From: Woeseiaceae bacterium
GTDB taxonomy: Bacteria > Pseudomonadota > Gammaproteobacteria > Steroidobacterales > Woeseiaceae
Assembly: GCA_030066655.1 (NCBI GenBank)
Contig: JASJBE010000015.1
Coordinates: forward strand, 1-43,572
Direction of reading: 5' to 3'
DNA length: 43,572 bases
The notes under the pieces are model-generated. The model ran no database searches, was not told the origin of the DNA, and worked only from the letters and a program-made list of their open reading frames with translations. Positions within the stretch are counted from its first letter, which is position 1; each line of letters begins with the position of its first letter. Made by a program: the position numbers and the translations under genes. This document shows positions 7,098-43,140 of the stretch, in pieces.

Positions 7098-7143
7098 GTA
7101 AGCTCCATGTTCGAAATGTAGGTATTGTCCTCAATGATCACGC

Positions 7144-8892: not shown

Positions 8893-8896
8893 CCTA

Positions 8897-9046
8897 TTAC
8901 TCCTCTGTTTGATCCAACGCATGGAAGATCGTCATCATAACCTGGTCAAAGTAGGTGGCTTGATCTTCCCTATGGGATGTTACGTCGCCCGCTAATCCGT
9001 TAGTGGCGATATTAGCGCGCAAAACGCCGAGAGCAGCTTGGTTCAT
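8897..9046 (-). CDS. Possible small protein, 49 residues
   Basis: A short ORF fills the gap between the serine hydrolase ending at 9060 and the amidohydrolase starting at 8892. ATG at 9046 follows TAAGG by 8 nt and begins 13 nt after the upstream stop. Its last two sense codons (GAG GAG) are the ribosome-binding site of the amidohydrolase, so the spacing suits translational coupling. The sequence begins MNQAALGVLRANIATNG and ends TIFHALDQTEE. There is no signal peptide or recognised domain. It may be a genuine small protein, a coupling leader, or chance; without homologues these cannot be told apart. Confidence 0.4.
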   Translation of the reverse strand: MNQAALGVLRANIATNGLAGDVTSHREDQATYFDQVMMTIFHALDQTEE

Positions 9047-9059
9047 GATGTATACCTTA

Positions 9060-10451: not shown

Positions 10452-10522
10452 TGTCTCTCTCCCGTTTGGGGTGTGATATTTAACGACCGGGCGCTACTTC
10501 GCCCGATCGGCGTCGCATGCCA

Positions 10523-10560
10523 GCACTCGTGCGCGAAGCTGAGTTCATACGCACGAGTGC
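10523..10560. repeat. Perfect 11-bp inverted repeat, 16-nt loop
   Basis: GCACTCGTGCG (10523-10533) is matched exactly by CGCACGAGTGC (10550-10560), separated by 16 nt. It lies in the 157-bp gap between two serine-hydrolase genes of the minus-strand cluster. No T tract follows on either side, so a simple intrinsic terminator is not indicated. An mRNA-stabilising or processing hairpin, or a protein-binding palindrome, would fit. Confidence 0.6.
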
Positions 10561-10608
10561 CAGCGCTGTTCCGGGTGGCGCTCACTTGAGGCTTCGGCTG
10601 CCTTGGGG

Positions 10609-11889: not shown

Positions 11890-11943
11890 AGCGTTATTCC
11901 TTTGAAATAGTATTTGTGGAATAGTAATTTCGACGACATCGGC

Positions 11944-12423
11944 CTAGCCGGTCGCGTGAGGTTTACAGGGTGCCAGCACGCACAAGCGGTCGAGAATATG
12001 CTTGGCGCGATTCTCTTTCCAGCCACCGGTGACCCCCTGAGTCGTGTCGACGCGCGCATACACGGTGAAAGCGCCTGAGGCGGCCTCGAGGTAAACGCCG
12101 GCAACGGACCCGTACTCATTCGCACGCAGGCCCCGCTCGGCAAAAACGACGCCGTTAGAGCGATCCGTCTTCACCGGTGTGTAACCACTGCCCTGCAATG
12201 CCTCAGCGATCAATGCGATGAGCTGTTCCGTCGATTCAGACTCGACGACGGTCAGGTAATCAGCGCTACTCTCATTATTGTTGGATGCGTCGTCAATGCT
12301 GTTTTTTCTGGCAGACACATCGTCAAAATCGATGTCCGCGCTCGACGCGCGGAAGTCTTTCAGATTCGCAACCGAGGCGCACGCACCCAACAAAACGGCA
12401 ACTAGCGGGACCATTATTCTCAT
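11944..12423 (-). CDS. Small predicted lipoprotein of unknown function
   Basis: A 159-residue protein with a short lipoprotein signal: MRIMVPLVAVLLGAC places the acylated Cys at residue 15. The mature part is Asp/Ser/Asn-rich up to about residue 60, followed by a compact alpha/beta region (STEQLIALIAEALQGSGYTP, GVYLEAASGAFTVYARVD). I do not recognise the family. It lies in the minus-strand hydrolase cluster, 39 bp after the amidohydrolase gene at 12463, and is probably co-transcribed. Residue 18 after the Cys onwards contains no obvious inner-membrane retention Asp at +2 (the residue after Cys is Ala), so outer-membrane sorting is expected. A role with the neighbouring periplasmic hydrolases is inference from position only. 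Confidence 0.75.
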   Translation of the reverse strand: MRIMVPLVAVLLGACASVANLKDFRASSADIDFDDVSARKNSIDDASNNNESSADYLTVVESESTEQLIALIAEALQGSGYTPVKTDRSNGVVFAERGLRANEYGSVAGVYLEAASGAFTVYARVDTTQGVTGGWKENRAKHILDRLCVLAPCKPHATG

Positions 12424-12462
12424 GTTCTTTTCCCAACGTGGTAAGGAGTGCAGCTGCTCGAT

Positions 12463-14187
12463 TTAGTCGCGCTCCACCTGTTTTTCATTGGTATGCACCA
12501 ACTCGCCCTCGAAGAACACCTGTTTCGCAAACCGCTTGTGTATCTGGTTGACCGGAACATCAAACGGATTCCGATCGATCACCAAGAAGTTGGCGTTCTT
12601 GCCAACTTCGATCGATCCGGCCCTGTCTTCGATACGCATGATGCGTGCGGCATTAATGGTGTAACCCTTGATCGCCTGCGGCAAAGAGATAGTTTGGGCA
12701 GGGTCGAACTTGTCCTGGATCTCTGCGGCGCCCTGCTGGCTGCGGGTCATGGCCTGCTCGATATGCAGGAAGGGGTTCATTGGCGCCTGGATCCAGTCGC
12801 TGGCGATGGTGTAATTGACGCCGTTGTTCACCGCATCGGCCATAGGCCAAATACGTCTGAGTTGGCTCATTTCCAGATCTTGCGCGGCCACATCGAATAA
12901 CTGCAAGCCAAGGAATACGTTGGGGGAGAACTCGAGAAAGCCGTTGACGTGCCGCAGCCGTGGAATGTCGGCCGGATCTACCATCATGGCATGGGCTACC
13001 TGGTTTCTGAGGTTTCGGACTTTCTCCAGGCCGTTGATCTCTGCCGACTCCTCCATGGCCCTGATCTCGAGCTCGAGGCCCCTGTCGCCCATGGTGTGAG
13101 TGGCGACGGACAGCCCCAGGCCGTTCCAACGCACCATGTCGTCCCGGTACTGCTCATAGGTCGTGAAGGTCTTGCCGAAGTCGGTGCCATCCCCGATGAA
13201 TGGCTGTTTAACCGCAATGGCACGGCCGAAGGGCGTCGAATCGATGAAGAGCTTAACCCCGTCGACTTTGTAGTGTTCGGTCTCATACTCGTCCCGCGCC
13301 AGGATCGCGTCGTCGTTGCGAAAACCGAAATAGAAATCCTCCTGATAGGGAAAGTGACGAACGTCCATTTTCAGCTCGCCCTCCTCATCAAGCCGCTTGA
13401 ACGCCGCCATCTGCACCTCATCGCCTTCCAGCACCTTGATGCCCGTAAAGCCGAAAGACGTGATGATGCCGGTCGCTTTCTTGGCCGCGTAGTAGACGTC
13501 GTCGAGCTCGAACCGTGGATGATGCCTTAGCACCAGCTTGATCGCCGGCGCCGCGTTGAGACGGCCTGTTGGCTGCCCGTCTGCGTCGCGCGCAATGCTG
13601 CCACCGACAGGGTCCGGCGTATCTGCGGTCACGCCCGCTATCTGCAGCGCCCTCGTGTTCGCGACCACGACGTGACCACCGTCGTCCTCGATAACCACAG
13701 GGCGATCGGCGACATATTTGTCGAGGAAATGGCGGTCCATCGCAATGCCGGAGCCCAGGAAATAGGTCCAGGAAAACGCAGCACCGTAAATCCACTCTTT
13801 GTCGGGGTTCTTGTCGGCGTAAGCTTTGAGTATCTCCCCAAACTCCGCGGGGGTGCGTGGTATGAAATTATCGTTACGGAAGAGCACATCTTCCATCATG
13901 ATCACTCGCACCGGGTGGGTGTGGCTGTCGATCATCCCGGGCATCATGAACTGGCCTTCCATATCCACCATCCGGGTCGACTTGGTCGCCAGTGCTTTCA
14001 CCTCGCTGTCGCTACCAACGGCCACGAACCTGCCGTCTTCAACGGCAATGGCGCTGACCCACGGTTGGTTCGGATTGACCGTGTACACCTCGGCGTTGAA
14101 ATACACCGTATCCACCGCCATAGCATTCATCGACGTTAATGCCAACACGCAGATCAGTGTTCTAACCAGCATTTCTCTAACCAACAT
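12463..14187 (-). CDS. YtcJ-type amidohydrolase (Amidohydro_3)
   Basis: Second exported Amidohydro_3 enzyme of the cluster, 574 residues from the chosen start. The open frame extends to 14247, but the ATG at 14187 is preceded by AGAGGA at 7 nt and gives a good signal peptide ending SMNAMA. Motifs: DTVYFNAEVYTV, MIDSHTHPVR (HxH metal site), ATHTMGDRG, HAMMVDPADIPRL and IASDWIQAPMNP (metal Asp). About the usual length for the family. The N-terminus contains a near-perfect 15-bp tandem duplication that makes MLVREMLVRT, giving a second possible start at 14172. It is probably the first gene of the cluster running down to 5799; the outer-membrane gene upstream is 118 bp away. Substrate unknown, an amide or N-acyl compound expected. 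Confidence 0.88.
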   Translation of the reverse strand: MLVREMLVRTLICVLALTSMNAMAVDTVYFNAEVYTVNPNQPWVSAIAVEDGRFVAVGSDSEVKALATKSTRMVDMEGQFMMPGMIDSHTHPVRVIMMEDVLFRNDNFIPRTPAEFGEILKAYADKNPDKEWIYGAAFSWTYFLGSGIAMDRHFLDKYVADRPVVIEDDGGHVVVANTRALQIAGVTADTPDPVGGSIARDADGQPTGRLNAAPAIKLVLRHHPRFELDDVYYAAKKATGIITSFGFTGIKVLEGDEVQMAAFKRLDEEGELKMDVRHFPYQEDFYFGFRNDDAILARDEYETEHYKVDGVKLFIDSTPFGRAIAVKQPFIGDGTDFGKTFTTYEQYRDDMVRWNGLGLSVATHTMGDRGLELEIRAMEESAEINGLEKVRNLRNQVAHAMMVDPADIPRLRHVNGFLEFSPNVFLGLQLFDVAAQDLEMSQLRRIWPMADAVNNGVNYTIASDWIQAPMNPFLHIEQAMTRSQQGAAEIQDKFDPAQTISLPQAIKGYTINAARIMRIEDRAGSIEVGKNANFLVIDRNPFDVPVNQIHKRFAKQVFFEGELVHTNEKQVERD

Positions 14188-14305
14188 TTCTTTGTCCTCT
14201 CGACTTCCCGGCGAAAACGCAGCGACACGAATGGTCGTTCGCTTCATCTTCTCGCTCCCAACAGTCTCTCACGATAATTCTCGAAGTCTCGCGCCATGGC
14301 CCGTC

Positions 14306-30957: not shown

Positions 30958-31620
30958 ATGAGTGCAACGCCGGAAAAAGCGAAGTCAGGCGCCAAACAAC
31001 GTATGTATGCCAAAGGAATCACGCGTCGCGAAGCCCTCATCGACACGGCTGCGGAACTGCTCGAAACACGCTCTGTCGACGACATATCGTTGAAACTGAT
31101 CGCCGATACCGCCGATATCGCCGTTGGCTCGGCCTACCATTTCTACCAGAACTCCAATGAGGTCTTTGCGGCCCTGGCGCGCCGATTCGGATTGGAACTT
31201 GCCGCTGAAATCGCAGCGCCCTACGGCGAGGTCGAGTCGAGCTCCTGGCAAACCATGTGGTGTACTGCAATCGACCGCGCTGTCGCCTTGTATCGGGACA
31301 AACCTGCCTATGCCCGATTGATCATCGGCGGAGAGGCACCCTCCGAAATCAAACTCAGCGATCGTGAGAACGATGAACAGATCGGTGAGCTTTTCGCCGA
31401 AATCATCGGCCGCAACTTCGAATTCCAGGATTTCCCGGGGCGCAACGGGATCTTCTTTATCGCGGTCGAAATCGTCGACCTTGTATTGAGCCTGTCCATG
31501 ATCCGGCTTGGCCATATCTCGGAGAACATGGCGGACGAAGCCAAGCGCGCGTCGATCGCCTATTTGAGAACCTACCTGCCCGAGACCATGCCGGTTCGCG
31601 CCTCGCAAGACAAAGACTAG
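30958..31620 (+). CDS. TetR/AcrR-family transcriptional regulator
   Basis: A 220-residue TetR-type repressor. The N-terminal HTH is ALIDTAAELLETRSVDDISLK followed by IADTADIAVGSAYHFYQNSNE; GSAYHFYQN is the recognition-helix motif (typical GxxYxHF). The rest is a helical ligand-binding domain ending in a charged tail. ATG at 30958 has AGGA 8 nt upstream. It diverges from the MipA/SYLF operon, which it may repress, and converges with the acyl-CoA ligase gene 49 bp away. Regulation of the amine-type catabolic cluster downstream is possible but not shown. Confidence 0.93.
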   Translation: MSATPEKAKSGAKQRMYAKGITRREALIDTAAELLETRSVDDISLKLIADTADIAVGSAYHFYQNSNEVFAALARRFGLELAAEIAAPYGEVESSSWQTMWCTAIDRAVALYRDKPAYARLIIGGEAPSEIKLSDRENDEQIGELFAEIIGRNFEFQDFPGRNGIFFIAVEIVDLVLSLSMIRLGHISENMADEAKRASIAYLRTYLPETMPVRASQDKD

Positions 31621-31668: not shown

Positions 31669-33297
31669 CTATGCGGGCAGCTGGTAGTCGTGAAACTGCT
31701 CCCTGAGCCGGAGCTTGCTGACCTTCCCGGTCGCTGTATGAGGGATTTCCTCGACAAACACCACGTCATCGGGCATCCACCATTTGGCAACCTTGCCGTC
31801 CATGAATTCGAGAACGGTGTCTCTCGAAAGATCCGCATCTGCAGCCGGGACCACGATCAGAACCGGGCGCTCGGTCCATTTCTCATGTGGGACTCCGATC
31901 ACGGCTGCCTCGGTCACGTCGGGATGCGCGACGGCGACGTTTTCAAGTTCAATTGAACTGATCCACTCTCCGCCGGACTTGATGACGTCCTTGGTTCGAT
32001 CGGTGATCTGCATATACCCGTCATTATCGATCGTCGCCACGTCGCCCGTATCGAACCAGCCATGCTCGTCGAACGCATCACTTTCATCGAGTTTGTAATA
32101 AGCGTCGGCGATCCAGGAGCCACGGACCTTCAGTGCGCCGAACGCCTTTCCATCCGTCGGTTGCAGCTCGCCCCCATCATTGACCACTTTGAGCTCAACC
32201 CCGTAGGGCGGCCTGCCCTGCTTGGCACGAACATGCTGTTGTTCATCGTGGCCGAGATTCTCGAATCCGTCCTTTGGAGCACACACCGTGCCGAGCGGCG
32301 ATGTCTCCGTCATGCCCCAGGCGTGGTAGGTATCGACGCCATGCTTCTCACGAAACTCGTCCATGATAGAGAGCGGGCACGCTGCTCCGCCCACCAACGT
32401 GCGATTCAGCGAACTTAGCGTCCGGCCCTCATTCTCGAGATGCTGCAGCAGGCCGAGCCAGACTGTCGGAACACCTGCCGCGATCGACACCTGCTCGTTC
32501 TCGAGCAATTCGACCAGGGTTGCCGGATCCGCTGCCATCGGACCCGGCAGCACGAATTTGGCGCCGACCATCGGCACCGAGTAGTTCAGGCCCCACGCAT
32601 TCGCATGGAACATCGGAACAACCGGCAAGACACAATCGCTGGCGCTGAGCGACATCGTGTCTGGCAGCGCGCTCGCGTAGCTGTGCAAAACGTTGCTGCG
32701 ATGACTATAGAGCACACCTTTCGGATTGCCCGTCGTACCCGACGTGTAGCACAGCGAACTCGCCGCGTTCTCATCCAGATCGGGCCATTCGAAATCGGCC
32801 TCGCCTGAATCGAGAAGCTCTTCGTAGCACAGAGCCCCCGGAATCGAGGTCTCCGGCATGTGCTTCCGGTCGGAGAGGACCACGAAGTGCTCAACACCCT
32901 TCACTCGGTCAATGATGTCTTCAATCAACGGAACGAACATTGGGTCGAGGAACAGGCAACGGTCCTCCGCATGATTGACGATGAACACGATCTGTTCTGC
33001 GAACAGGCGCGGGTTGACCGTGTGGCAAACGTATCCCGCGCAGGAAATCGCGTAGTACAGCTCGAAATGACGGTGGTCGTTCCACGCGAGTGTCGCGACG
33101 CGGTCGAACGAATCGAGTCCCAGCCCGGACAGGGCGCTGGCCAATTGCCGCGCCCTGCGAAATGCATCACCGTAGGTATAGCGGTGCCGCGCGTTATCGT
33201 GCGTAACCGACAATATTTCCCTGCCTGAATGCTGGCTGTCGGCATGACGCATGATCGACGTTATCGTCAATGCGCTGTCCATCATTAATCCACGCAT
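31669..33297 (-). CDS. AMP-forming acyl-CoA ligase (DmdB/AlkK-like)
   Basis: A 542-residue adenylate-forming acyl-CoA synthetase that activates a carboxylic acid with ATP and CoA. Motifs: P-loop [11 protein letters not shown] (184-194), acid-binding WGMTETSP (327-334), hinge GWFDTGD (413-419) and catalytic Lys525 in TATGKVSK. The flow of motifs and size resemble medium-chain/3-methylthiopropionate ligases (AlkK/DmdB group), so a medium- or long-chain fatty acid or thio-acid is likely. The start at 33297 has GGAG 7 nt upstream. It is the last gene of the minus-strand unit with the TonB receptor, APH-fold kinase and amidohydrolase (24-bp gap), suggesting it activates the acid released by that amidohydrolase. 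It ends converging with the TetR gene. Confidence 0.92.
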
Positions 33298-33321
33298 TAT
33301 TGCTCTCCCCGAATTATGCCG

Positions 33322-35091
33322 CTACTCGGCAGCCCGCTCGCCGTAGAAATCAATGACTTCATGTTTCTGTGACTGGTTGTAGACCTCGCGCCCGCCGACG
33401 AAGGTCCTGACGACCTCGGTCTCGTGGACTTCGTGGATCGGGATGTCAAAGATATTGCGGTCAACGACGATGAAGTCCGCGGCCTTACCTTTCTCGATCG
33501 AGCCGATTTCGTGTTCCTGCTGCTGTGAGTACGCGCCGCCGGCCGTGTACAGATACACGGCTTCCTCAAGCGTAATCGCGTGCTCGGCGTGCAGGGCCGG
33601 ACCGGTGGTAACACCGGGCGCGCGCCGGGTCACCATGGTTTCCAATGCCGTCCAGGGATTCGCCTGCGTGACCGTCCAGTCAGAACCAACGGACAGTGGG
33701 GCACCGCTGTCGAGCAGCTCTCTCATCGGGTAAAGCCAGCCAATCCGCTCTTCACCGATGTCCGGAGTAATTACATCGACCGCCGGCGTGTAGTACCAGA
33801 AGACCGGTGAAAACTCGGCAATGACATCCAGTTCTGCAAAGCGTGGTATGTCGGCCGGGTTGAGTATCGCGGTGTGCGCCACGGCGTGGCGAAGTGTGCT
33901 TCCACGCTTGCGTAACTCCTCGACACCGTCGAGTACGTGCCGTGCCGCGCCATCCCCAGCCGCGTGGGCACGCACTGTCAGCCCCATTTCGTCGTAAGCT
34001 ATGAGTCTTTCTGTGAACAGGTCCGGATCGATGCGCCAGGGGCCGAAGTCGTCCTCGGTGCCCTCGTATGGCTCCGTCAGAACAGCTGTTCTTCCAGCCG
34101 CGCCGCCATCCAGTACGAACTTGACGCCAAGTAGCCTGACGTTTTCCGACGTGTACTCGTCCGGATTCGCGATGACTTGCCTGGACTTTTCCTTCATCCA
34201 CTCATTGACCCAGTCGGACGGGTCTGTGACGAAAGACGAAACCCGCAGCGTCAGGTCGCCGTTCTTGTCGAGCAGGACATACGACTCCATGTACCACTCG
34301 CGGCTCCATACATCGGTGATCGACGTTATACCGAGACTATTCAGATACTGAAAAATCGGAACGATCCGCTTGTATGCAATCTCCGTTGCCGGCGGTTGAT
34401 CTTTAAGATACTCCTCCCACACGACGTGGGCCGCCGTTTCCCGGACCAGGCCCGTGAGTTCCCCATTCTCGTCGCGCACGAAGTAGCCGCCAGGCGGATC
34501 CGGCGTGTCTTTCGTAACCCCAAGCAGCTCGAGCGCCTTGGTGTTGACCAGCGCGGCGTGTCCGCTGACTTCCCAGAAATACGCGGGCCGGTCGTCGACC
34601 AGCTCGTCGATGATGGATTTATGGGACGGCTTGTCAAACATGCGAATACTGCTGCCGTCATCCCACATGTAGTCGATGCTTCCACCGTAAACCCAGGGAG
34701 CATCCGGATTGGCCTGAAGGTAGGCGCGTACGGCAGCGGCAAAGTCGTCGTAAGAGTCTGCCTCGGCGTCGATATTGACGTTATAGTAACTCTCCGCGGC
34801 AAGGTCTGGATGAATGTGATCGTCAACCAGGCCTGGCAACACGAGCCGTCCTTGCAAATCCTCCATCCGCGTCGATTCGCCACGCAAACCGGCCAGCGAC
34901 TCGCTTGACCCAACGCCAACAAACCGTCCATCCCTGACGGCAAATCCGCTCGCCCACGGTTGGTCGCGGTCAACGGTATAGACGAGACCGTTTTCGTAGA
35001 TGACGTCGGCGGCGAATTCCGATCGCGTTGGTTCGGAGCACGCCCCGAGTAACGCAGACAAAACCAACAGCGCAAGCTTCTCTCTGCTCAT
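33322..35091 (-). CDS. YtcJ-type amidohydrolase, predicted lipoprotein
   Basis: Third Amidohydro_3 enzyme in the window, 589 residues, with a lipoprotein signal (LVLSALLGAC, Cys18 from the ATG). Motifs: DVIYENGLVYTV, LVDDHIHPDL (HxH), RAHAAGDGA (metal His), HTAILNPADIPRF and VGSDWTVTQANPW (metal Asp). TTG at 35097 immediately follows the stop of the kinase gene; the ATG at 35091 is preferred but has a weak ribosome-binding site. Lipid anchoring suggests it acts in the periplasm, at the inner face of the outer or outer face of the inner membrane, where it would meet a substrate imported by the TonB receptor. Probable reaction is hydrolysis of an amide or N-acyl bond. It belongs to the unit 38531-31669. 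Confidence 0.88.
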   Translation of the reverse strand: MSREKLALLVLSALLGACSEPTRSEFAADVIYENGLVYTVDRDQPWASGFAVRDGRFVGVGSSESLAGLRGESTRMEDLQGRLVLPGLVDDHIHPDLAAESYYNVNIDAEADSYDDFAAAVRAYLQANPDAPWVYGGSIDYMWDDGSSIRMFDKPSHKSIIDELVDDRPAYFWEVSGHAALVNTKALELLGVTKDTPDPPGGYFVRDENGELTGLVRETAAHVVWEEYLKDQPPATEIAYKRIVPIFQYLNSLGITSITDVWSREWYMESYVLLDKNGDLTLRVSSFVTDPSDWVNEWMKEKSRQVIANPDEYTSENVRLLGVKFVLDGGAAGRTAVLTEPYEGTEDDFGPWRIDPDLFTERLIAYDEMGLTVRAHAAGDGAARHVLDGVEELRKRGSTLRHAVAHTAILNPADIPRFAELDVIAEFSPVFWYYTPAVDVITPDIGEERIGWLYPMRELLDSGAPLSVGSDWTVTQANPWTALETMVTRRAPGVTTGPALHAEHAITLEEAVYLYTAGGAYSQQQEHEIGSIEKGKAADFIVVDRNIFDIPIHEVHETEVVRTFVGGREVYNQSQKHEVIDFYGERAAE

Positions 35092-35097
35092 AGTCAA

Positions 35098-36120
35098 TCA
35101 GCCGCCGTCTACGATGTCACTGGCAACGGCGACCGCCGCTTCGATGATCACTGCGGCGATGTCTTCCATTTCCTCGGTTACCCCGCGTGTGTGCATCCAG
35201 CCCAGGTAGGTAAACAAGCGCGCCATGATGAAAAACGGCAGGTATGCGAGATCCTCGTCCGGAAGTTCGTGCTCGGATCGATAGCCCTCGACATAGGCGC
35301 CCAGCGCCTCATCGAAATGTGGCTCTCCCAACAGAACGAACAGCGAGGTCGCAAGCTCGAACATGAACCAGCCGTATCCTGCATCGTCGAAGTCGATCAG
35401 CTGGGGATTATCTCCTTCGATTACGACGTTCTCAGGAAGAAAATCGGCGTGGATAAGCCCGTAGTTTCGTTCCGACCGGCCGAACTCGATAAGCTGGGCG
35501 CGAATGATCTCTCTCGCCTCCGCGATCAGCCCACGCTCTTCGCCGGTCAGTCTTTCGTTCTCCCAGAAACGCCCCCAGACCGGCTGCTCGCCAACGAGCC
35601 CTTCGACGTCCCAGTGATGCCGGGTAAACCCTTCCGGTACAGCCCATTCGCTCGAGAAGCGGTGCAGGCGACCAGCGAGCTTTCCTAGCTTTCGATAGTT
35701 GACCGCAATGTCGTTGGCGCTGGCTTCGATGCCTTCTTCGATCGTGCCCATAGCTTCGCCGTCGATCCATGCGAGCAGATCAACTTGCCTTGGCTCGGGG
35801 ACCGACGCGATGGAAACCGTGTCGAAGAGCTCGCCGGTCAGGGTTGGCTGGACGGCGGGGGTACTGATGCCCGCTGCGTCCAGCGCAGCCATCCACTGCA
35901 ATTCTGATCTCAGCTCGGCGTCGCTGTGATAGCCGGCGCGGTGGATGCGTAAGGCGAATTTCTCACCTCCCGGCTGCTCCACACCGAATACCGCGTTTTC
36001 ACGCATCTTGATGAGTGTGAGTTTCGCCTCATTGATGCCCCAGCGATGCAGTGCCGCCCCGGCCAGCAGCTCGTATGCCCTGCCCTGGTCCGCGGACGAT
36101 AGTGAGTAGAAATCGTTCAT
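35098..36120 (-). CDS. APH-fold small-molecule kinase (homoserine kinase-II/SrkA-like)
   Basis: A 340-residue phosphotransferase of the aminoglycoside phosphotransferase/choline kinase superfamily. The Brenner catalytic loop is LIHADFLPENVVI (His224, Asp226, Asn231), and LIDFDDAG (241-248) carries the metal Asp. ATP-lobe features are ENAVFGV and KFALRIHRAGYHS. This family phosphorylates hydroxyl groups of small molecules (homoserine, choline, ethanolamine, hydroxylysine, protein Ser/Thr). It lies 8 bp after the TonB-receptor gene and directly abuts the amidohydrolase, so it probably acts in the same pathway. In animals, related kinases pair with class III PLP phospho-lyases; here such an enzyme is encoded at 40422. 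The substrate is not shown by sequence. Confidence 0.9.
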   Translation of the reverse strand: MNDFYSLSSADQGRAYELLAGAALHRWGINEAKLTLIKMRENAVFGVEQPGGEKFALRIHRAGYHSDAELRSELQWMAALDAAGISTPAVQPTLTGELFDTVSIASVPEPRQVDLLAWIDGEAMGTIEEGIEASANDIAVNYRKLGKLAGRLHRFSSEWAVPEGFTRHHWDVEGLVGEQPVWGRFWENERLTGEERGLIAEAREIIRAQLIEFGRSERNYGLIHADFLPENVVIEGDNPQLIDFDDAGYGWFMFELATSLFVLLGEPHFDEALGAYVEGYRSEHELPDEDLAYLPFFIMARLFTYLGWMHTRGVTEEMEDIAAVIIEAAVAVASDIVDGG

Positions 36121-36128
36121 CGTATCGC

Positions 36129-38531
36129 CTAGAACCAGTTGTATTCGAAGCTGACGCCGTAGGTCCTCACCTTGCCGGCCATACCGAACGTCATATCGTT
36201 GCCCCAGTTCTTGCTGGGTTGGTAGAACTCGTCTCCGATGTTCTTACCCCACAAGGCGAGAGCCCACCTGGCATCGTCGCTCATCAACGTGATGCGCCCA
36301 TTCACTACGAACCAGTCCTCGGCGATCATGTCCTCGTAGACCACGAGGTCGCCGGCGTCGCCCAGGATCGTTGAGTACTTGTCGGAGTAGTTGAAGTCCG
36401 TCGCGAAACGGAGCGTCATTTTGTTCGCCAAGTCCACGGTGTACGCAACTACGCCGCTGTACTGCAGATCGGGGGTCTGCGCCAGCTCGCGGCCCGCGAG
36501 GTCTTCGCCATAGAAATCCGTGTACTCGATGACTTCACTGTCGAGGAACATTGCCGCAAGACGGATTTCCAAAGCGTCAGTCGGGAGCCAGTTCCATTCC
36601 AGTTCGAGCCCCTGAACTTCGGACTTCGGTACATTCGTCAGTCGAACCAGTGGGCCGAAGAGCGTGTCGACGCTGTCGTATGCCTGCTTGTCATCGTAAT
36701 CGTAGAAGAACGCGGCACCATTGAGCTGCATGGCTCCGTCGGCCAGCGTGGCCTTTGTCCCGAGCTCGTAGGCCAACAGTGTCTCTTCCTTGTAGGCGGT
36801 CATTGCGCTCCAGTCGTTTACCGGCGACCCGTTGTAACCGCCCGACTTGAAACCGGAGCTGATACTCACGTAGACGAGCACGTCGTCGCGCGCAAACCAG
36901 TCGAGACCGGCCTTTCCGGAGAAGTTGTCGGTCTGGATTTCTTCGCGGAACAGCGGATTGTCGATCTCGCCCGTCGCCGGATTTACGGCAGAGCCGTCGA
37001 TAGACAGGCACTCGTTCGGTTCGAACGGAACGAATCCGGGCTGGCTCAACAGGAAGACGTTGTTGTACAGCCAGGCAATATCACCGCCGTGATCATGGGT
37101 ACAACCAACCCACTCACGAGTCTCATCCGTGTATCGAGCGCCCAGTGTGAGGCGGAAACCATCACCGAACTCGAACTCGGCGTGTCCGAACACACCCAAC
37201 GCGTCGGTTTCCTGCTCGTACGCCGTTCTGAACGCATTGAACCCCAGTCCACCGCCACCGGCACCCGTGTTCGAGACGTCGCCGATGAACTCATCGTCTA
37301 CCGTGTCACTGGAGAGGTAGATACCACCGACCCAGGTCACGCTGCCACCGCCGTTGTAGCTGAGGCGCAGCTCCTGGCTCACGCCGTCAATGTCGCTCTC
37401 CATGAAGCTGTCCCACATGGCGAGCGGGGTGCCGTCCCAATCCTGGTCCTCGCTGCGCTCGAAGCGGCGGTATCCCGTGATCGACGTCAGGCCGTAAGCT
37501 TCGTTGATATCCCAGTTGATCGTGAGTCCGACGCCTGAGTTCGTGTTGTCGCGAACCGGACGTGTACCCCAGTCAGCCAGGGACGCGTCCTTGCTTGTCG
37601 GCGCGTATTGCAGGACATCGGCGAACCCGGCGAAGTTCGGATCCAGCGGAAGTTCTGCGAGGAATGCCAGGACAGGATACAGCGTCGGGTTGTTCGTCGT
37701 GGCGACCCCGGGCTGGAAATTGACGGGGACGGCGGCACTGGTCAATTCCTGCACGAATGCGGCCTGGCCGTCCGAACGGTCGCGATTTCCGTTGACGTTC
37801 AGCGTGACGTCTACGGTGTTCGATGGCGTCCATCGCAACAATAGGCGCGCGCCGACCTCGTCGATTTCACCCAGCTTGTCGCCCGGGCGCGAAACGCTTT
37901 CCTGCCAGCCTTCGCCCTGCTGTGTCGAGGTGACGGCCAATCTCGCAGAGAGCTGATCGCCAAGCCCGCCACTGACGAACGCGTCGGTGCGAAAATACTC
38001 GAAATTGCCGGCATCCAGCGTAACTCCGGCTTCGAATTCCTGAGTCGGCTTCTTGCTGATGATATTGATAGCGCCGCCCGTGTTATTGCGACCGTAGAGA
38101 TCGCCCTGCGGGCCCTTCAGCACCTCGATTCGTTCCACGTCGAACATGACACCCTGCGTCATGACCGGATACGGCAGCGCAACATCGTCTAAGTAGACGC
38201 CCACTGTCGAGTTGCTGCCGATGCTGTAGTCGTCGAAGCCGACGCCCCTGATCGTGTAGATCGGGATGCCAGACGGCTGAGTTTCAGTGATTACAAACCC
38301 TGGCGTGATATTGGCCATTTCCGTCGCATCGACAATACCCATTTCGGCCATCTGATCGCCGGTTATGGCCGAGATGCTGATGCCTACATCATTAAGGTTC
38401 TGCTCTCTGCGCTGTGCCGTCACCGTGACCTCGTCGAGCACGCTGTCCTGCGCGATTGCGAGATCCGCCGCCAGAAGTGACGTCAAAAGTACCGCCGCCA
38501 GACCTGCTGGCTGGTGTTTCTTGAGCTTCAT
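36129..38531 (-). CDS. TonB-dependent receptor
   Basis: An 800-residue outer-membrane TonB-dependent receptor. Signal peptide ends DLAIAQ; a TonB box-like segment (VLDEVTVTAQRREQNLNDVG) precedes the plug (ISAITGDQMAEMG, TRGVGFDDYSIGSNSTVGVYLDDV, IEVLKGPQGDLYGRNNTGGA). The barrel follows and ends FEYNWF with a terminal Phe. The ATG at 38531 has GGGGGG 3-8 nt upstream. The architecture is the sugar/vitamin/organic-ligand type seen in many marine proteobacteria, not clearly siderophore. It is first in a four-gene unit (receptor, kinase, amidohydrolase, acyl-CoA ligase), so its ligand is probably the compound the others break down. Upstream palindrome TCGAA/TTCGA (38546-38559) may be an operator. 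Confidence 0.95.
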   Translation of the reverse strand: MKLKKHQPAGLAAVLLTSLLAADLAIAQDSVLDEVTVTAQRREQNLNDVGISISAITGDQMAEMGIVDATEMANITPGFVITETQPSGIPIYTIRGVGFDDYSIGSNSTVGVYLDDVALPYPVMTQGVMFDVERIEVLKGPQGDLYGRNNTGGAINIISKKPTQEFEAGVTLDAGNFEYFRTDAFVSGGLGDQLSARLAVTSTQQGEGWQESVSRPGDKLGEIDEVGARLLLRWTPSNTVDVTLNVNGNRDRSDGQAAFVQELTSAAVPVNFQPGVATTNNPTLYPVLAFLAELPLDPNFAGFADVLQYAPTSKDASLADWGTRPVRDNTNSGVGLTINWDINEAYGLTSITGYRRFERSEDQDWDGTPLAMWDSFMESDIDGVSQELRLSYNGGGSVTWVGGIYLSSDTVDDEFIGDVSNTGAGGGGLGFNAFRTAYEQETDALGVFGHAEFEFGDGFRLTLGARYTDETREWVGCTHDHGGDIAWLYNNVFLLSQPGFVPFEPNECLSIDGSAVNPATGEIDNPLFREEIQTDNFSGKAGLDWFARDDVLVYVSISSGFKSGGYNGSPVNDWSAMTAYKEETLLAYELGTKATLADGAMQLNGAAFFYDYDDKQAYDSVDTLFGPLVRLTNVPKSEVQGLELEWNWLPTDALEIRLAAMFLDSEVIEYTDFYGEDLAGRELAQTPDLQYSGVVAYTVDLANKMTLRFATDFNYSDKYSTILGDAGDLVVYEDMIAEDWFVVNGRITLMSDDARWALALWGKNIGDEFYQPSKNWGNDMTFGMAGKVRTYGVSFEYNWF

Positions 38532-38545
38532 AATCCCCCCGGATT

Positions 38546-38559
38546 TCGAATATGTTCGA
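38546..38559. promoter_or_regulatory. Palindrome in the divergent TBDR/ALDH promoter region
   Basis: TCGAA (38546-38550) and TTCGA (38555-38559) form inverse arms around TATG. It lies 15-28 bp upstream of the TonB-receptor ATG, in the 129-bp AT-rich region shared with the aldehyde dehydrogenase gene. Position and symmetry fit a repressor operator, but short palindromes arise by chance. Confidence 0.3.
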
Positions 38560-38660
38560 GATTTAGGGCAGCATTACAGAAACTTTTCGGGTTTACAAGC
38601 GGAAAGTCGCAATTTTACCGCTTCATAATTGCTTAAAAACCATTTCTATTCTAAATTTAG

Positions 38661-40400
38661 ATGCACCAAACACGACTGATCGGCCATGTGATGACAAAGG
38701 ACGCTCTGGAACAGGCGATTCTCGACCTTCGTTCCAATAAGAATCAGTGGGCACGGGTAAGCGTCGCGGATCGAATCGACATCCTGACCCGAATTCGCAC
38801 CGCAACCGCCGACGCTGCCAGCGAATGGGCTGCTCTCGCTTGCAACGGCAAGCAAATACCTGCCGGGTCAGAACTCGAAGGCGAAGAATGGCTCTCGGGA
38901 CCGTACCCTCTCATCCTGGCCTGCACGGCACTTATCAGGACGTTGCGGGGCATACAGGAGAACTCAGTCGCGAACGAACTCTCTACACGCCAGGTGACGA
39001 ATGATCAGATTGCGGTTCGTGTTGTCCCTGGCGATATCTGGGACCGGCTGGTTCTCGGGGGCGTCACCGCTGACGTCTGGATGCAGCCAGGCGTCAGCGC
39101 TGCAAACCTGAGAGAGAACATCGCAACAACCTACGAGCAGCCGGACTGTTGTCGCCGAGGCAGCGTCTCGCTGGTGCTGGGCGCTGGGAACATCAACGCG
39201 ATTGCGCCCCTGGACTGCTTTCAAAAACTGTTTGTTGAACACTCCGTCGTAGCGCTCAAATTAAACCCTGCTAATGCGTATATGGAGCCCGTTCTTACAC
39301 GGTGTTTGCAGCCCTTGATCGATGCGAACGCGCTGAGAATTGTCACCGGTGGCAGCGACGTTGGCAGCAGTCCGTGCAATCACGAACTTGTCGATTCGAT
39401 ACATATTTCGGGCGCGGGACAAACGCACGACGCGATCGTCCGGGGCACCGGCGAAGAAGCGGCCCGAGAAAAGAAGGACGGGACGCCGTTGAATCCATGG
39501 CCGTTTACGTCTGAGCCCGGGGCTGTATGCCCGACAATCGTCGTACCGGGAGGCTGGAGTCGTCGCGACCTCAAGTACCAGGCGCAACAGGTTGCGACAC
39601 AAACACTGCACAACAGTGGATTCAACTGCGTTGCAACGAAAGTACTCGTTGTGCCGCGCAAGTGGAATCAGTGTGATGAGTTCCTCGAAGCGCTGCGAGC
39701 GGAGTTTCGGAACTCACCGGGCCGGCCGCTACACTACCCGGGTTCTGGAAACAGGATAGATGAAGTGCCTGGCGGCTATCCGGGCGCTGATGAATTCTCG
39801 GTCAGCGACGATTGCCGCCGGGTTCTGACCGAGGTTGATAGCAGAGACTGCGGTCTGGATCCGGAGCGAGAAGAAATATACGTGCCCGCGCTCGCCATCA
39901 AGTACATCGATGCACCCGATACGGAGAAGTACCTGCGCGCGGCGATCGGATACTGCAATGAAGAGCTTCATGGCACGCTCGGCGCGAACATCGTTATACA
40001 TCCGTCGACGAAGAAACTTCTGGGCTCGAACTGGAACGAAATGCTCGCATCGCTCCAGTACGGATGCATTGCCATAAACACCTGGACCGGGCTGGGGTTC
40101 CTGCTTGTCACGACGCCCTGGGGCGCGTACCCCGGGCACACTTTGGACGACGTGCAGAGTGTAATCGGTTTTGTTCAAATCACTTATATGTTGAACAAAG
40201 TCGAGAAGACTGTCATTGAGGCGCCGTTTCGTCCGTTTACGCGGAGTTTTTTCAGCACGCGGTCTGCGTCGCTCCCGAAGCCTCCCTGGTTCGTGGCCCA
40301 CAAGCGGGCGGCGAACCTTCGCAAGCTGCTGTCGCAATTTCAGGCACGTCGAAGCCTGCTGCGGGTGCCCAGGATCTTCGTAAACGCGTTGTCAGGCTGA
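38661..40400 (+). CDS. Aldehyde dehydrogenase family protein
   Basis: A 579-residue protein of the aldehyde dehydrogenase superfamily, longer than the usual 480-500. The catalytic Cys323 lies in SGFNCVATKVLVV; Glu285 in TSEPGAVCP is the likely general base, and Lys200 and Asn179 (GAGNINAIAPLD) correspond to the NAD-binding and catalytic positions. The segment VDSIHISGAGQTHDAIV is typical of the family branch. Expected reaction: NAD(P)-dependent oxidation of an aldehyde to an acid. No strong ribosome-binding site precedes 38661; an ATG at 38691 is an alternative. It is divergent from the TonB receptor and lies 21 bp before the class III PLP enzyme, which could generate its aldehyde substrate. 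Confidence 0.9.
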   Translation: MHQTRLIGHVMTKDALEQAILDLRSNKNQWARVSVADRIDILTRIRTATADAASEWAALACNGKQIPAGSELEGEEWLSGPYPLILACTALIRTLRGIQENSVANELSTRQVTNDQIAVRVVPGDIWDRLVLGGVTADVWMQPGVSAANLRENIATTYEQPDCCRRGSVSLVLGAGNINAIAPLDCFQKLFVEHSVVALKLNPANAYMEPVLTRCLQPLIDANALRIVTGGSDVGSSPCNHELVDSIHISGAGQTHDAIVRGTGEEAAREKKDGTPLNPWPFTSEPGAVCPTIVVPGGWSRRDLKYQAQQVATQTLHNSGFNCVATKVLVVPRKWNQCDEFLEALRAEFRNSPGRPLHYPGSGNRIDEVPGGYPGADEFSVSDDCRRVLTEVDSRDCGLDPEREEIYVPALAIKYIDAPDTEKYLRAAIGYCNEELHGTLGANIVIHPSTKKLLGSNWNEMLASLQYGCIAINTWTGLGFLLVTTPWGAYPGHTLDDVQSVIGFVQITYMLNKVEKTVIEAPFRPFTRSFFSTRSASLPKPPWFVAHKRAANLRKLLSQFQARRSLLRVPRIFVNALSG

Positions 40401-40421
40401 CTGCCCGCAAGGACGACTCCA

Positions 40422-41795
40422 ATGACCGGCTCCTCAGACTCCGACACCAAGGGCTTCGAAAGACTGGGCCACGTCAATTTCAGCGGTCAATACGACACCG
40501 ATGCAGTGGACAATGCCGAGCTGATTGAACGCCGGAACAAGTATTTCGCCGGAAGTTTCCTGTTCTTTCACAACCCCGTTCACCTGGTACGAGGAGAGGG
40601 TGTCTGGCTGTACGACGATCAAGGGAGGAAATACCTGGATGCGTACAACAACATTCCGAACGTAGGCCACTGCCACCCCAGGGTCGTCGACGCCATTTGC
40701 GCACAGGCCAGGCAACTCAATACACACACCCGTTACCTCCACGAGAACATCATCAACCTTGCAGAGCGAATTGCGGGCACGACACCCCAAGGGCTGGACG
40801 TGTCGTTGTTCGCGTGCAGCGGGACCGAGGCCTGTGAGCTCTCCCTGCGGCTGGCCCGGCAGGTCACCGGCAATTCCGGGATTATCGTGATGGAAAGCTC
40901 CTACCACGGTAATTCCAAACTTGTCGGGGAAATGTCGACAATCACGTACGCGCCGGACGCCCGGCCAACCTGGATCGCGACTGTCGAACCGCCCAATGCG
41001 TATCAGGGACCCTTTCGCGACGGAGATGGCGATCTTTCCTGCAGGTACGCTGACCTGGTCGACGACGCTATTTCGCAGTTGCAAGACAGCGGTCATGGCG
41101 TCGCAGCATTCGTCTGCGATGCGATTTTCGATTCGCAAGGTACGCTCGAGGCCCCGAAGGACTATTTCAAACTCGTCTACGAGAAAGTCCGGGCGGCTGG
41201 TGGTCTGTGTATTGCGGACGAGGTCCAGGCGGGTTTCGGCCGTACAGGCAAATACTGGGGATTCGAACACTACGATGTCGTGCCCGACATTTTGTTCGCT
41301 GGCAAGCCGATGGGCAACGGTCATCCGACGTCCCTCGTCACAACGCGACGCGACATAGCCGACAAGTGGGCAGAAAACGATGCCTACTTCAATACTTTTG
41401 GCGGCAATCCCGTCAGCGCGGCCGCAGCAGATGCCATGATGGCCGTCATGGAGGACGAGAATCTTGTCGAAAACTGCGCCGAAGTCGGAAGTTACCTGCG
41501 CGCGAGACTTGAAGCACTTGCCGACAGGCATACGATCATCGGCAATGTGCGCGGCCGCGGCCTCTTCCAGGGCATCGAACTCGTCAAAGACCGTGAAAGC
41601 CGCGAGCCGGCGCCTGAGGTGGCCGCCAGGATTCCTGACCGCATGAAGGACGAAGGTGTGTTAATCGGGCTTACCGGGCGTTATGGAAACGTGTTGAAGT
41701 TTCGTTTTTCGCTCGTCGCGACTCGAGAAAACGTCGATACACTGTTTGCCGCACTGGACAAGGTAATTCGCGATGCACCGAGGACGATGTCCTGA
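40422..41795 (+). CDS. Class III PLP enzyme (aminotransferase or phospho-lyase)
   Basis: A 457-residue class III PLP-dependent enzyme. Lys295 in LFAGKPMGNGHP forms the aldimine; Asp266 in IADEVQAGFGRTG pairs with the pyridine N; ACSGTEACELSLRLAR binds phosphate, and NTHTRYLHENIINLAERI is the segment also seen in AGXT2, ethanolamine-phosphate phospho-lyase and phosphohydroxylysine phospho-lyase. Those eukaryotic enzymes remove phosphate and ammonia from phospho-amines to give aldehydes. That chemistry would suit the nearby kinase (35098) and aldehyde dehydrogenase (directly upstream). An omega-amino acid transaminase is the main alternative; the discriminating residues cannot be checked here. 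Start at 40422; the gene overlaps the DNA glycosylase by 23 nt. Confidence 0.92.
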   Translation: MTGSSDSDTKGFERLGHVNFSGQYDTDAVDNAELIERRNKYFAGSFLFFHNPVHLVRGEGVWLYDDQGRKYLDAYNNIPNVGHCHPRVVDAICAQARQLNTHTRYLHENIINLAERIAGTTPQGLDVSLFACSGTEACELSLRLARQVTGNSGIIVMESSYHGNSKLVGEMSTITYAPDARPTWIATVEPPNAYQGPFRDGDGDLSCRYADLVDDAISQLQDSGHGVAAFVCDAIFDSQGTLEAPKDYFKLVYEKVRAAGGLCIADEVQAGFGRTGKYWGFEHYDVVPDILFAGKPMGNGHPTSLVTTRRDIADKWAENDAYFNTFGGNPVSAAAADAMMAVMEDENLVENCAEVGSYLRARLEALADRHTIIGNVRGRGLFQGIELVKDRESREPAPEVAARIPDRMKDEGVLIGLTGRYGNVLKFRFSLVATRENVDTLFAALDKVIRDAPRTMS

Positions 41796-42414
41796 TTTGA
41801 GCTCGATTTCGCACTCACCCACGCACGCACCCGCGGAAAGGCTCCCGGCAGATTTCTACTTGCGCGATGCCGTCGAAGTCGCCCGCGATCTTCTTGGCAA
41901 GGTTCTCTGTTCGCATTTCGACGGGCAATTGACCGAGGCCGTGATCACCGAAACGGAGGCTTACGCCGGCACCGGGGATCGTGCCAGCCATGCCTTCGGT
42001 GGCCGCCGCACGGCGAGGACCGAGCCGATGTACCGCGAGGGCGGCGTTGCTTACATCTATCTCTGCTACGGCATCCATCACCTGTTCAACGTCGTGACTG
42101 GCAAGCGAGACGATCCTCAAGCCGTATTGCTTCGCGCGGGTGAACCTCTGCGAGGCATCGATGAAATGCGAGTGCGGCGCAACAAAACAGCTGGCAAGTC
42201 GAAGCTGATGGCGGGGCCCGGATCGCTGTCGCAGGCCTTGGGCATTCACACGAAGCTCAGTGGTGTAAGCCTCTTTGGCGACGAATTGTGGATTGAAGAT
42301 CACCAGCTCGTCGTGACTGACGAGGACATCGTCGTCGGCCCACGAATCGGCATCGACTACGCTGGCGACGACGCGGCGAGACCGTATCGATTCGTCCTTA
42401 CGAGTATGCCGTAG
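41773..42414 (+). CDS. mpg: DNA-3-methyladenine glycosylase (AAG/MPG family)
   Basis: A base-excision repair glycosylase that removes alkylated purines such as 3-methyladenine. The family signature is intact: LPADFYLRDAVEVARDLLGK, ITETEAYAGTGDRASHAFGG (with the catalytic Glu in the TEAY context), YREGGVAYIYLCYGIHHLFN, LLRAGEPL, and LMAGPGSLSQALGI. Length (about 205-213) matches bacterial members. The ATG at 41773 lies inside the end of the PLP-enzyme gene; a TTG at 41797, 2 bp after that gene's stop, is an equally possible start because the first eight residues are not conserved. Placement in the catabolic unit is probably coincidental. Confidence 0.95.
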   Translation: MHRGRCPDLSSISHSPTHAPAERLPADFYLRDAVEVARDLLGKVLCSHFDGQLTEAVITETEAYAGTGDRASHAFGGRRTARTEPMYREGGVAYIYLCYGIHHLFNVVTGKRDDPQAVLLRAGEPLRGIDEMRVRRNKTAGKSKLMAGPGSLSQALGIHTKLSGVSLFGDELWIEDHQLVVTDEDIVVGPRIGIDYAGDDAARPYRFVLTSMP

Positions 42415-42551: not shown

Positions 42552-42764
42552 ATGCCCAGCATCAAGATAAGTTCCAAAGTCGAACAAGCCGAATGGAAGG
42601 CACTGCAGGATCTCGCCAAGGAGTCCCATCAGAGCATTTCCGGCCTGCTCACTGAGGCAATCAGCGATTACGTACGTAAACGCCGATTGCGTCCTGCTGT
42701 AATGGATCACCTCGAAGACGCGATGCAGGAGAACGAAGAGCTGGGCCACCGACTTGCCCGATAG
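42552..42764 (+). CDS. Ribbon-helix-helix antitoxin
   Basis: A 70-residue protein beginning MPSIKISSKVEQAEWKAL, with an RHH DNA-binding fold (beta strand IKISSKV, then LQDLAKESHQSISGLLTEAI). The C-terminal part (YVRKRRLRPAVMDHLEDAM) is charged and helical, as antitoxin parts that wrap the toxin are. ATG at 42552 is used; a TTG at 42525 lies in the promoter repeats and is unlikely. It overlaps the toxin start by 11 nt, the standard antitoxin-first order. It should neutralise the Doc-like toxin and repress its own promoter. Confidence 0.85.
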   Translation: MPSIKISSKVEQAEWKALQDLAKESHQSISGLLTEAISDYVRKRRLRPAVMDHLEDAMQENEELGHRLAR

Positions 42765-43140
42765 CGCAGTTCAATTCCTGTCGCTTGATGAAGTGCTCGC
42801 GATTCAGGAGCGACTGATCGAGCGATTTGGCGGCGACCACGGTATTCGCGATCAGGGCCTCCTGGAAAGTGCCCTCTTTCGCCCGCAGACCGGTTACTAC
42901 ACACATATCGAAGAGATGGCGGCAGCGATGTTCGAGTCCCTGCTAATCAATCGCGCCTTCGTGGATGGCAATAAGAGAGTCGCTTTCTTCGCCACCGACG
43001 TATTTCTGCGTCTGAACGGTTGGAAGCTTGTCCTCACTGCCGACGAAGGCGAACAGTTTATCGTCGGCATGCTCGAAGCCAACGACTGTTCGTTTGAAAA
43101 GATTCTTCCCTGGATTCGCGAACACATAGTCAAAAAGTAG
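42754..43140 (+). CDS. Doc/Fic-family toxin with altered motif
   Basis: A 128-residue Fic-fold protein of the death-on-curing (Doc) type. N-terminal FLSLDEVLAIQERLIERFGG and GIRDQGLLESALFRPQ match the family; the Fic motif region reads INRAFVDGNKRVAFFA. In Doc and Fic enzymes the motif is H-x-F-x-(D/N)-(A/G)-N-(K/G)-R; here Arg67 occupies the usual catalytic His, while Phe, Asp, Asn, Lys and Arg remain. Doc phosphorylates EF-Tu and Fic enzymes AMPylate. Loss of His would normally weaken both, so the toxin may be attenuated or use a different chemistry. TTG at 42754 overlaps the antitoxin stop. Identification as a toxin-antitoxin pair is solid; activity is uncertain. Confidence 0.82.
   Translation: MPDSAVQFLSLDEVLAIQERLIERFGGDHGIRDQGLLESALFRPQTGYYTHIEEMAAAMFESLLINRAFVDGNKRVAFFATDVFLRLNGWKLVLTADEGEQFIVGMLEANDCSFEKILPWIREHIVKK

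What the first reader, a model, noticed from the sequence alone, without database searches (positions are those of the whole stretch)
31669..41795. Possible N-acyl amine catabolic system with a kinase plus phospho-lyase route
Seen: TonB receptor, APH-fold kinase, lipoprotein amidohydrolase and acyl-CoA ligase on one strand, packed with gaps of 24 bp or less, and an aldehyde dehydrogenase plus class III PLP enzyme on the other strand from the same 129-bp region. Established: APH-fold kinases and class III PLP phospho-lyases act in sequence in ethanolamine and hydroxylysine breakdown in animals; acyl-CoA ligases activate fatty acids. Inference: the amidohydrolase frees an acid (then CoA-activated) and an amino-alcohol (phosphorylated, split to an aldehyde, oxidised). 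N-acylethanolamines or related N-acyl amino-alcohols would fit. I know of no described bacterial locus with this gene set.
Basis: partly seen in the sequence, partly recalled or inferred. Interest (0 to 1): 0.72.

Follow-up and report, generated by a model that had tools for sequence, protein, structure and literature searches.

The report
Hydroxy-amine kinase and phospho-lyase locus
A bacterial gene cluster that probably takes up a hydroxylated amine, tags it with phosphate, strips off the phosphate and ammonia to leave an aldehyde, and burns the aldehyde for energy; relatives of its kinase and lyase usually sit side by side, some of them next to genes for breaking down aromatic acids.

Summary
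The six genes are real and where stated. The class III PLP enzyme falls in the phospho-lyase clade (A1RDF1, human ETNPPL), not with transaminases. The kinase falls in a clade in which 33 of 36 other loci have a class III PLP gene or fused domain within 1.4 kb (29 of the phospho-lyase type). So amine -> amine phosphate -> aldehyde is well supported by homology, and this core recurs in several bacterial classes. The six-gene set is not conserved: full-length ALDH is found in none of 148 relatives, the ligase belongs to a common family, the amidohydrolase to a large one. N-acylethanolamine as substrate has no specific support. Two leads point elsewhere: relatives of the kinase-lyase pair occur in hpa or paa clusters (8 of 36, all on plasmids) or beside methylamine-dehydrogenase-like genes (5 of 36), hinting at beta-hydroxy-arylethylamines; and the ALDH family recurs beside an acyl-CoA ligase (7 of 16 loci), so the ligase may serve the ALDH product. 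Against the aromatic reading: PaaA/C, HgmA and LigB were not found in this genome (91% complete), nor hpa/paa markers in 19 clade loci from its class. Best reading: a linear beta-hydroxyamine route, substrate unknown; a new variant of a known kind.

The parts
31669..33297 (-). acyl-CoA ligase (DmdB-like / long-chain-fatty-acid ligase subfamily)
   Evidence: NCBIfam NF005426 818 bits against cut-off 822; NF004674 793 against 766; best PDB 6ihk, E 1.6e-198; a relative at E<=1e-150 in 100 of 149 genomes, own included
33322..35097 (-). Amidohydro_3 metallohydrolase with a lipobox (LLGAC, read by eye); probable envelope hydrolase of an amide or other bond
   Evidence: Pfam E 1.2e-83; metal-site motifs DDHIH, VKFVLDGG, HAAGD, GSD; nearest relatives 39-40% identical
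35098..36120 (-). APH-fold small-molecule kinase
   Evidence: Pfam APH 94 bits; HADFLPEN and DFD motifs; best PDB 6ef6, E 2.8e-50; clade tree
36129..38531 (-). TonB-dependent receptor
   Evidence: Pfam plug and barrel
38532..38660 (.). divergent intergenic region, presumed to hold the promoters of both arms
   Evidence: 129 bp between divergent starts; no promoter-like site found in it
38661..40400 (+). divergent 579-aa aldehyde dehydrogenase
   Evidence: Aldedh E 9e-10; N177, E285 and C323 invariant in 7 family members; Foldseek to GapN 2id2, E 4e-16, on a model of mean pLDDT 70
40422..41795 (+). class III PLP enzyme, predicted phospho-lyase
   Evidence: GKPMGNGHP motif, R104 and K426
30958..31620 (+). 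TetR-family regulator, possibly of this locus
   Evidence: TetR_N and TetR_C_22; convergent with the ligase gene; no shared operator found

Best explanation
The locus encodes a linear catabolic route for a beta-hydroxyamine. The TonB receptor brings in the amine or a conjugate of it (inferred). The lipoprotein amidohydrolase may free the amine in the envelope (the weakest step, inferred). The kinase phosphorylates the hydroxyl group beta to the amine. The PLP enzyme eliminates phosphate and ammonia, leaving an aldehyde. The divergent ALDH oxidises it to an acid, and the ligase makes the acyl-CoA. No step is shown biochemically: kinase and lyase rest on homology, clade and neighbourhoods; ALDH and ligase order on recurring neighbourhoods; the substrate is unknown. 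Contexts in the kinase clade lean to beta-hydroxy-arylethylamines (phenylethanolamine, octopamine and the like), but the ring-degradation genes I looked for were not found in this genome.
For: The PLP enzyme lies in one clade with A1RDF1 and ETNPPL (35 rows, 100/99); its sisters are PLP domains of ~790-aa ORFs (L074, L075), L074 shown to be an APH-PLP fusion. 17 positions are identical in all 35 clade rows and rare (<30%) in 15 outgroup rows; 9 of them (N76, N100, R104, L106, V256, G261, F323, N324, K426) also differ in the 7 more distant class III rows. The kinase lies in a 37-row clade (100/100); of the 36 other loci 33 have a class III PLP gene or fused domain within 1.4 kb on the same strand, 29 of them 40-51% identical to the window's. 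A canonical ALDH gene is directly beside the pair in L058, L060, L061, L164 and L174, and about 4 kb away in L059. The window's ALDH family has an acyl-CoA ligase directly beside it in 7 of 16 loci examined, about 4 independent cases because L076/L077, L117/L118 and L119/L120 are near-copies. Aromatic contexts: hpa/paa genes in 8 of 36 clade loci, 0 of 9 kinase loci outside the clade, 0 of 13 ALDH loci; methylamine-dehydrogenase-like genes in 5 of 36; in G081 a paa set about 13 kb from the pair.
Against: PaaA/C, HgmA and LigB were not found in the own genome (91% complete). In G055, G077 and G088 the paa genes are on other contigs than the pair. In 4 clade loci (L062, L064, L065, L125) the PLP partner is another class III group (25-28% identity); the two tested, L062 and L125, are nearest putrescine/acetylornithine transaminases. 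Three clade loci show no PLP gene (L066, L072, and L071 at a contig end). The window ligase lies outside the clade of ALDH-paired ligases. The window's kinase and lyase are on opposite strands and 4.3 kb apart, unlike the adjacent pairs. No kinase or lyase was seen in the 16 ALDH loci (by BLAST in 9; by annotation in 7). No activity has been measured.
Confidence: 0.55

Rival explanations
1. One reading: an N-acyl amino-alcohol such as N-acylethanolamine is split by the amidohydrolase; the ligase activates the acyl acid, and kinase, lyase and ALDH burn ethanolamine via acetaldehyde.
For: Same gene content; kinase, amidohydrolase and ligase packed on one strand with gaps of 24 bp or less. Two relatives' loci (L058, L061) have kinase, phospho-lyase and ALDH with an amidase (PF01425; lipobox read by eye), an ActP-like symporter (718.7 bits against cut-off 750 in L061) and TonB receptors.
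Against: The amidohydrolase is one of a large family, nearest relatives 39-40%, and is not an amidase-signature protein (that FAAH is one is recalled). The closest solved kinase, 6ef6, branches apart; no known ethanolamine kinase was placed in the tree. The ALDH family recurs beside a ligase in stretches where no amidohydrolase is listed.
Confidence: 0.17
2. Two unrelated units side by side: an operon TonB receptor-kinase-amidohydrolase-ligase and an ALDH-PLP pair, brought together by chance or transfer.
For: The arms are divergent; full-length ALDH is in none of 148 relatives; ligase and amidohydrolase belong to large families; the PLP enzyme's closest relatives sit in ORFs with no BLAST match to the window's kinase.
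Against: Kinase and phospho-lyase are each the single match in the genome at the thresholds used yet share a locus, and such pairing is the rule in the kinase clade. G+C of the six genes is 0.576-0.594, window 0.584.
Confidence: 0.18
3. A sub-case of the best explanation: the substrate is an aliphatic 1-amino-2-alkanol; the phospho-lyase gives an alkanal, the ALDH an alkanoic acid, the DmdB-like ligase the acyl-CoA.
For: In Polaromonas the ALDH and a ligase lie with an FA_desaturase/ferredoxin/reductase fusion, a GMC oxidoreductase and OmpW, which I read as an alkane-type operon; the window ligase is DmdB-like; the ring-degradation genes looked for were not found in this genome.
Against: Where the kinase clade's contexts are telling they are aromatic, and 6ef6 (recalled as an aminopropanol kinase) is outside the clade.
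Confidence: 0.25
4. The PLP enzyme is an ordinary omega-transaminase and the kinase an unrelated phosphotransferase.
For: Generic annotations of both families in public records; some clade kinases are paired with transaminase-like class III proteins.
Against: Clade, clade-specific residues and neighbourhoods.
Confidence: 0.05

Closest known systems
Ethanolamine-phosphate phospho-lyase ETNPPL (6tor) and bacterial phospholyase A1RDF1 (5g4i; the name A1RDF1 is recalled)
   Same: PLP enzyme clade and clade-specific residues; expected elimination of phosphate and ammonia
   Different: substrate unknown; the window enzyme sits in its own sub-branch with PLP domains of relatives' longer ORFs
Aminopropanol kinase/phospho-lyase route of the RMM/AAU microcompartment (6ef6; identity and context recalled, not read)
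   Same: APH kinase plus class III lyase plus ALDH logic
   Different: kinase in a separate clade; no shell-protein family among the 29 window proteins scanned
Kinase + phospho-lyase pairs in hpa/paa clusters (Mesorhizobium AR07, Rhizobium CIAT894 and brockwellii, Agrobacterium CFBP7129, Ruegeria THAF33)
   Same: same kinase clade; adjacent lyase of the same clade
   Different: adjacent on one strand; canonical ALDHs where one is present; hpa or paa genes; no TonB receptor annotated in the stretches shown
Relatives' loci L058-L061 and L164: PLP, kinase, ALDH and methylamine-dehydrogenase-like genes, sulfatase in 3 of 5, TonB receptor in 4 of 5
   Same: kinase, lyase and ALDH, mostly with TonB receptor; amidase in L058 and L061
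   Different: different ALDH and amide-hydrolase families, plus the amine dehydrogenase
GMC-ligase-ALDH operons of Polaromonas pPNAP01 and Sulfitobacter; ligase-ALDH pair of Klebsiella
   Same: the rare ALDH family and a ligase 47-51% identical to the window's
   Different: no kinase or lyase annotated; their ligases form a clade of their own

Membership tests
class III PLP phospho-lyase (ETNPPL/A1RDF1) | sequence clade with characterised phospho-lyases, apart from other class III enzymes | tested here: met
   35-row clade, 100/99 (long branches flagged by the tool)
class III PLP phospho-lyase (ETNPPL/A1RDF1) | clade-specific residues incl. R104, K426 | tested here: met
   that R104 and K426 bind phosphate is inference
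class III PLP phospho-lyase (ETNPPL/A1RDF1) | releases phosphate and ammonia from an amine phosphate | not testable with these tools
   needs enzyme assay
aminopropanol kinase of the RMM/AAU microcompartment | kinase groups with 6ef6 | tested here: not met
   a 37-row clade with 100/100 support excludes 6ef6
aminopropanol kinase of the RMM/AAU microcompartment | shell-protein genes nearby | tested here: not met
   none among the 29 window proteins scanned; not all window ORFs were scanned
N-acylethanolamine hydrolase (FAAH type) | amidase-signature family (recalled) | tested here: not met
   the window enzyme is Amidohydro_3
N-acylethanolamine hydrolase (FAAH type) | hydrolyses N-acylethanolamines | not testable with these tools
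   needs enzyme assay
aldehyde dehydrogenase superfamily | ALDH fold with catalytic Cys, Glu and Asn | tested here: met
   model only moderately confident (mean pLDDT 70)
3-methylthiopropionyl-CoA ligase DmdB | NCBIfam NF005426 cut-off (822 bits) | tested here: not met
   818 bits, just below; passes NF004674 (793 against 766)
   full-length ALDH in 1 of 149 genomes, the own one; for other members; many genomes are incomplete drafts

The most novel reading that the evidence does not exclude
The kinase and phospho-lyase pair is a general bacterial entry route for beta-hydroxylated aromatic amines (phenylethanolamine, octopamine, noradrenaline, synephrine) into arylacetate catabolism, running parallel to amine oxidases and quinoprotein dehydrogenases; the window carries a rearranged version fed by an outer-membrane receptor and a lipoprotein hydrolase and drained by an alkane-pathway-type ALDH and an acyl-CoA ligase.
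Probability: 0.28. Interest if true: 0.72.

Novelty: new variant of a known kind. Interest (0 to 1): 0.5.

Why it matters
In the annotated records read here the PLP genes of such pairs are called aminotransferases and the kinases phosphotransferases or homoserine kinases. The clade and neighbourhood evidence gives these pairs a testable function and names likely substrates, some of them signalling amines of plants and animals. It would also give a role to a rare, divergent ALDH family. For the window itself the outcome is more modest: a plausible beta-hydroxyamine route of unknown substrate.

Tried and rejected
PLP as omega-transaminase: rejected on clade and residues. Six-gene conservation: not found. 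Aminopropanol microcompartment membership: kinase clade differs. Ligase as inherited partner of the ALDH: the window ligase is outside the ALDH-paired clade. Operator search in the 129-bp region and before TetR: no shared 8- or 9-mer, no perfect inverted repeat with arms of 6-9 and spacers of 0-8. Promoter scan: 3 found against 3.2 expected, none in the 129 bp. Amidohydrolase search at E<=1e-120 was too strict and was repeated at 1e-70. Text searches, of which I saw the listed rows only, gave PMC8154272 on a related class III lyase and otherwise nothing on point among those rows; the library holds open-licence papers only, so this is no proof of absence in print.

After the required check I changed: the number of clade-specific residues (17, of which 9 against both comparison groups, not 11); the ALDH of the relatives' loci (best NCBIfam match is aminobutyraldehyde dehydrogenase, 392 bits, then phenylacetaldehyde dehydrogenase StyD, 363, both under their cut-offs), which I had called StyD-like; ALDH adjacency in L059 (about 4 kb, not adjacent); and added that all 8 hpa/paa loci are on plasmids. 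For this the probability of the novel case was lowered from 0.30 to 0.28 and that of an aromatic substrate from 0.40 to 0.38.
Full report
Observation. On the minus strand TonB receptor, kinase, amidohydrolase and ligase are spaced 8, 0 and 24 bp apart; on the plus strand ALDH and PLP genes are 21 bp apart; the starts diverge across 129 bp. Families were confirmed with Pfam and NCBIfam. The ALDH is so divergent that phmmer finds no solved relative at E<=0.001, but a model from 7 sequences (mean pLDDT 70) matches ALDH structures (best 2id2, GapN, E 4e-16, TM 0.55, 15% identity), and N177, E285 and C323 are invariant in the 7. A TetR gene lies convergent to the ligase.

The PLP enzyme. Best solved relatives are the phospho-lyase 5g4i and human ETNPPL 6tor (357 and 343 bits); the next, an isoleucine epimerase, has 196. 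In a 58-row tree it lies in a 35-row clade with both (100/99); its nearest rows are the PLP domains of L074 and L075 (100/98), ORFs of 789 and 792 aa. L074 was shown to be an APH-PLP fusion; L075 was not scanned. The tool flagged long branches among the outgroups. 17 positions are identical in all 35 clade rows and rare in 15 outgroup rows; 9 of these also differ in 7 more distant class III rows.

The kinase. Best solved relative is 6ef6 (E 2.8e-50), which I recall as the aminopropanol kinase of a Mycobacterium microcompartment (not read here). In a 48-row tree the window kinase is in a 37-row clade (100/100) that excludes 6ef6. I examined 45 kinase loci: all 16 non-own places, all 10, and 19 of the 93 plasmid records. 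Of the 36 inside the clade, 33 have a class III PLP gene or fused domain within 1.4 kb on the same strand; the three without are L066, L072 and L071 (the last at a contig end). In 29 of the 33 it is 40-51% identical to the window's PLP enzyme; in L062, L064, L065 and L125 it is another class III group (25-28%), and for L062 and L125, the two scanned, the nearest families are putrescine and acetylornithine transaminases. That is unexplained. Of the 9 kinase loci outside the clade, 4 (L135, L169, L170, L172) have a class III gene within 150 bp. The kinase itself is patchy: 15 of 149 relatives at E<=1e-15 and 11 of 274 class genomes at E<=1e-40, own included in each.

Neighbourhoods. With fixed identity cut-offs, hpa or paa genes lie within about 9 kb in 8 of 36 clade loci, 0 of 9 kinase loci outside the clade and 0 of 13 ALDH loci (some loci are short). 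Softer cases not counted: L123 (protocatechuate dioxygenase), L134 (an annotated hpaD), L127 (tyramine oxidase), L132 and L059 (phenol hydroxylase), and G081, whose paa set lies about 13 kb from its pair; in G055, G077 and G088 the paa genes are on other contigs. Five loci (L058-L061, L164) hold PLP, kinase, ALDH and relatives of both methylamine dehydrogenase chains; in L061, the one scanned, both chains pass Pfam's but not NCBIfam's cut-offs, and the ALDH is nearest aminobutyraldehyde dehydrogenase (392 bits) and then phenylacetaldehyde dehydrogenase (363), both under cut-off. That the amine dehydrogenase acts on aralkylamines is my inference. Aromatic contexts occur on both sides of the first split drawn in the kinase clade; the window kinase sits between them, but that split is weakly supported (84/62 and 83/64) and the root is a midpoint.

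Is the set conserved? In 149 genomes (own included) full-length ALDH is found only in the own genome, with a 54-residue fragment in G009; the kinase in 15; the PLP in 89 at E<=1e-60; the ligase in 100 at E<=1e-150; the amidohydrolase in 1 at E<=1e-120 and in 67 at E<=1e-70, best non-self identity 39-40%. The TonB receptor was not searched genome-wide.

ALDH and ligase. A scan of the 84,980-species collection with patterns from this one protein (close relatives only) gave 6 ALDH loci, the class sample 3 non-own of 274 genomes, the plasmids 17 records, of which 7 were read. Of these 16 loci, 7 have an acyl-CoA ligase directly beside the ALDH (L076, L077, L116-L120; about 4 independent cases). 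Five of the 7 have a GMC oxidoreductase too (L116-L118 annotated, L076 by NCBIfam, L077 by its near-identical ORF); Polaromonas adds an FA_desaturase/ferredoxin/reductase fusion and OmpW. No kinase or lyase was seen in the 16 (by BLAST, by annotation; three of them have only 1.5-kb flanks). The 7 ligases form one clade (100/100) that excludes the window ligase, so the window's pairing is a separate recruitment or a coincidence. In G009 the ALDH remnant (C231:2732-2893) lies about 6 kb from a ligase gene (C231:8951-10558).

Against the aromatic reading: in the own genome (91% complete) PaaA/C was not found, while 91 of the 149 have it, nor HgmA, nor LigB. Other ring-cleavage families were not searched there.

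Conclusion. My estimates: kinase-to-aldehyde core 0.8, ALDH as the next step 0.65, ligase after the ALDH 0.5, amide hydrolysis 0.35, aromatic substrate 0.38. N-acylethanolamine remains possible but unprivileged.

Papers. PMC8154272: passages seen; [quoted passage not shown] Other papers: search listings only. The publications of 5g4i and 6ef6, the animal phospho-lyase work and older work on bacterial amino-alcohol breakdown are recalled, not read.

Noticed in passing
L062:8939-11269, L064, L065, L125:7645-8949, L169, L172: Kinases paired or fused with a second class III group (25-28% identity to the window PLP; nearest putrescine/acetylornithine transaminases for L062 and L125): perhaps an independent phospho-lyase, or a transaminase acting on the phosphorylated amine.
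   Followed up: partly
L058-L061, L164: Recurring locus of PLP, kinase, ALDH and methylamine-dehydrogenase-like genes, often with TonB receptor and sulfatase; two copies have an amidase.
   Followed up: partly
L119 and L120 (Klebsiella pneumoniae): The rare ALDH family sits with an acyl-CoA ligase as a two-gene unit beside potABCD and pepT, apparently chromosomal DNA in records labelled plasmid.
   Followed up: no
G009:C231:2732-2893 (L010): A 54-residue ALDH remnant about 6 kb from an acyl-CoA ligase gene on the same contig of a same-genus genome.
   Followed up: no
window 5799-14247: Three beta-lactamase-family serine hydrolases and two further Amidohydro_3 enzymes, all on the minus strand.
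   Followed up: no
window 41773-42414: The 3-methyladenine DNA glycosylase ORF as listed overlaps the end of the PLP gene by 23 bp; its true start may lie downstream.
   Followed up: no
window 42754-43140: Doc-type Fic toxin gene (TIGR01550); a neighbouring antitoxin was not looked for.
   Followed up: no
L129, L130, L134, L137-L139: These Rhizobiaceae and Roseateles loci with the kinase-lyase pair also carry a second class III gene, a Tm-1-like ATP-binding protein and a HAD hydrolase of unknown role.
   Followed up: no
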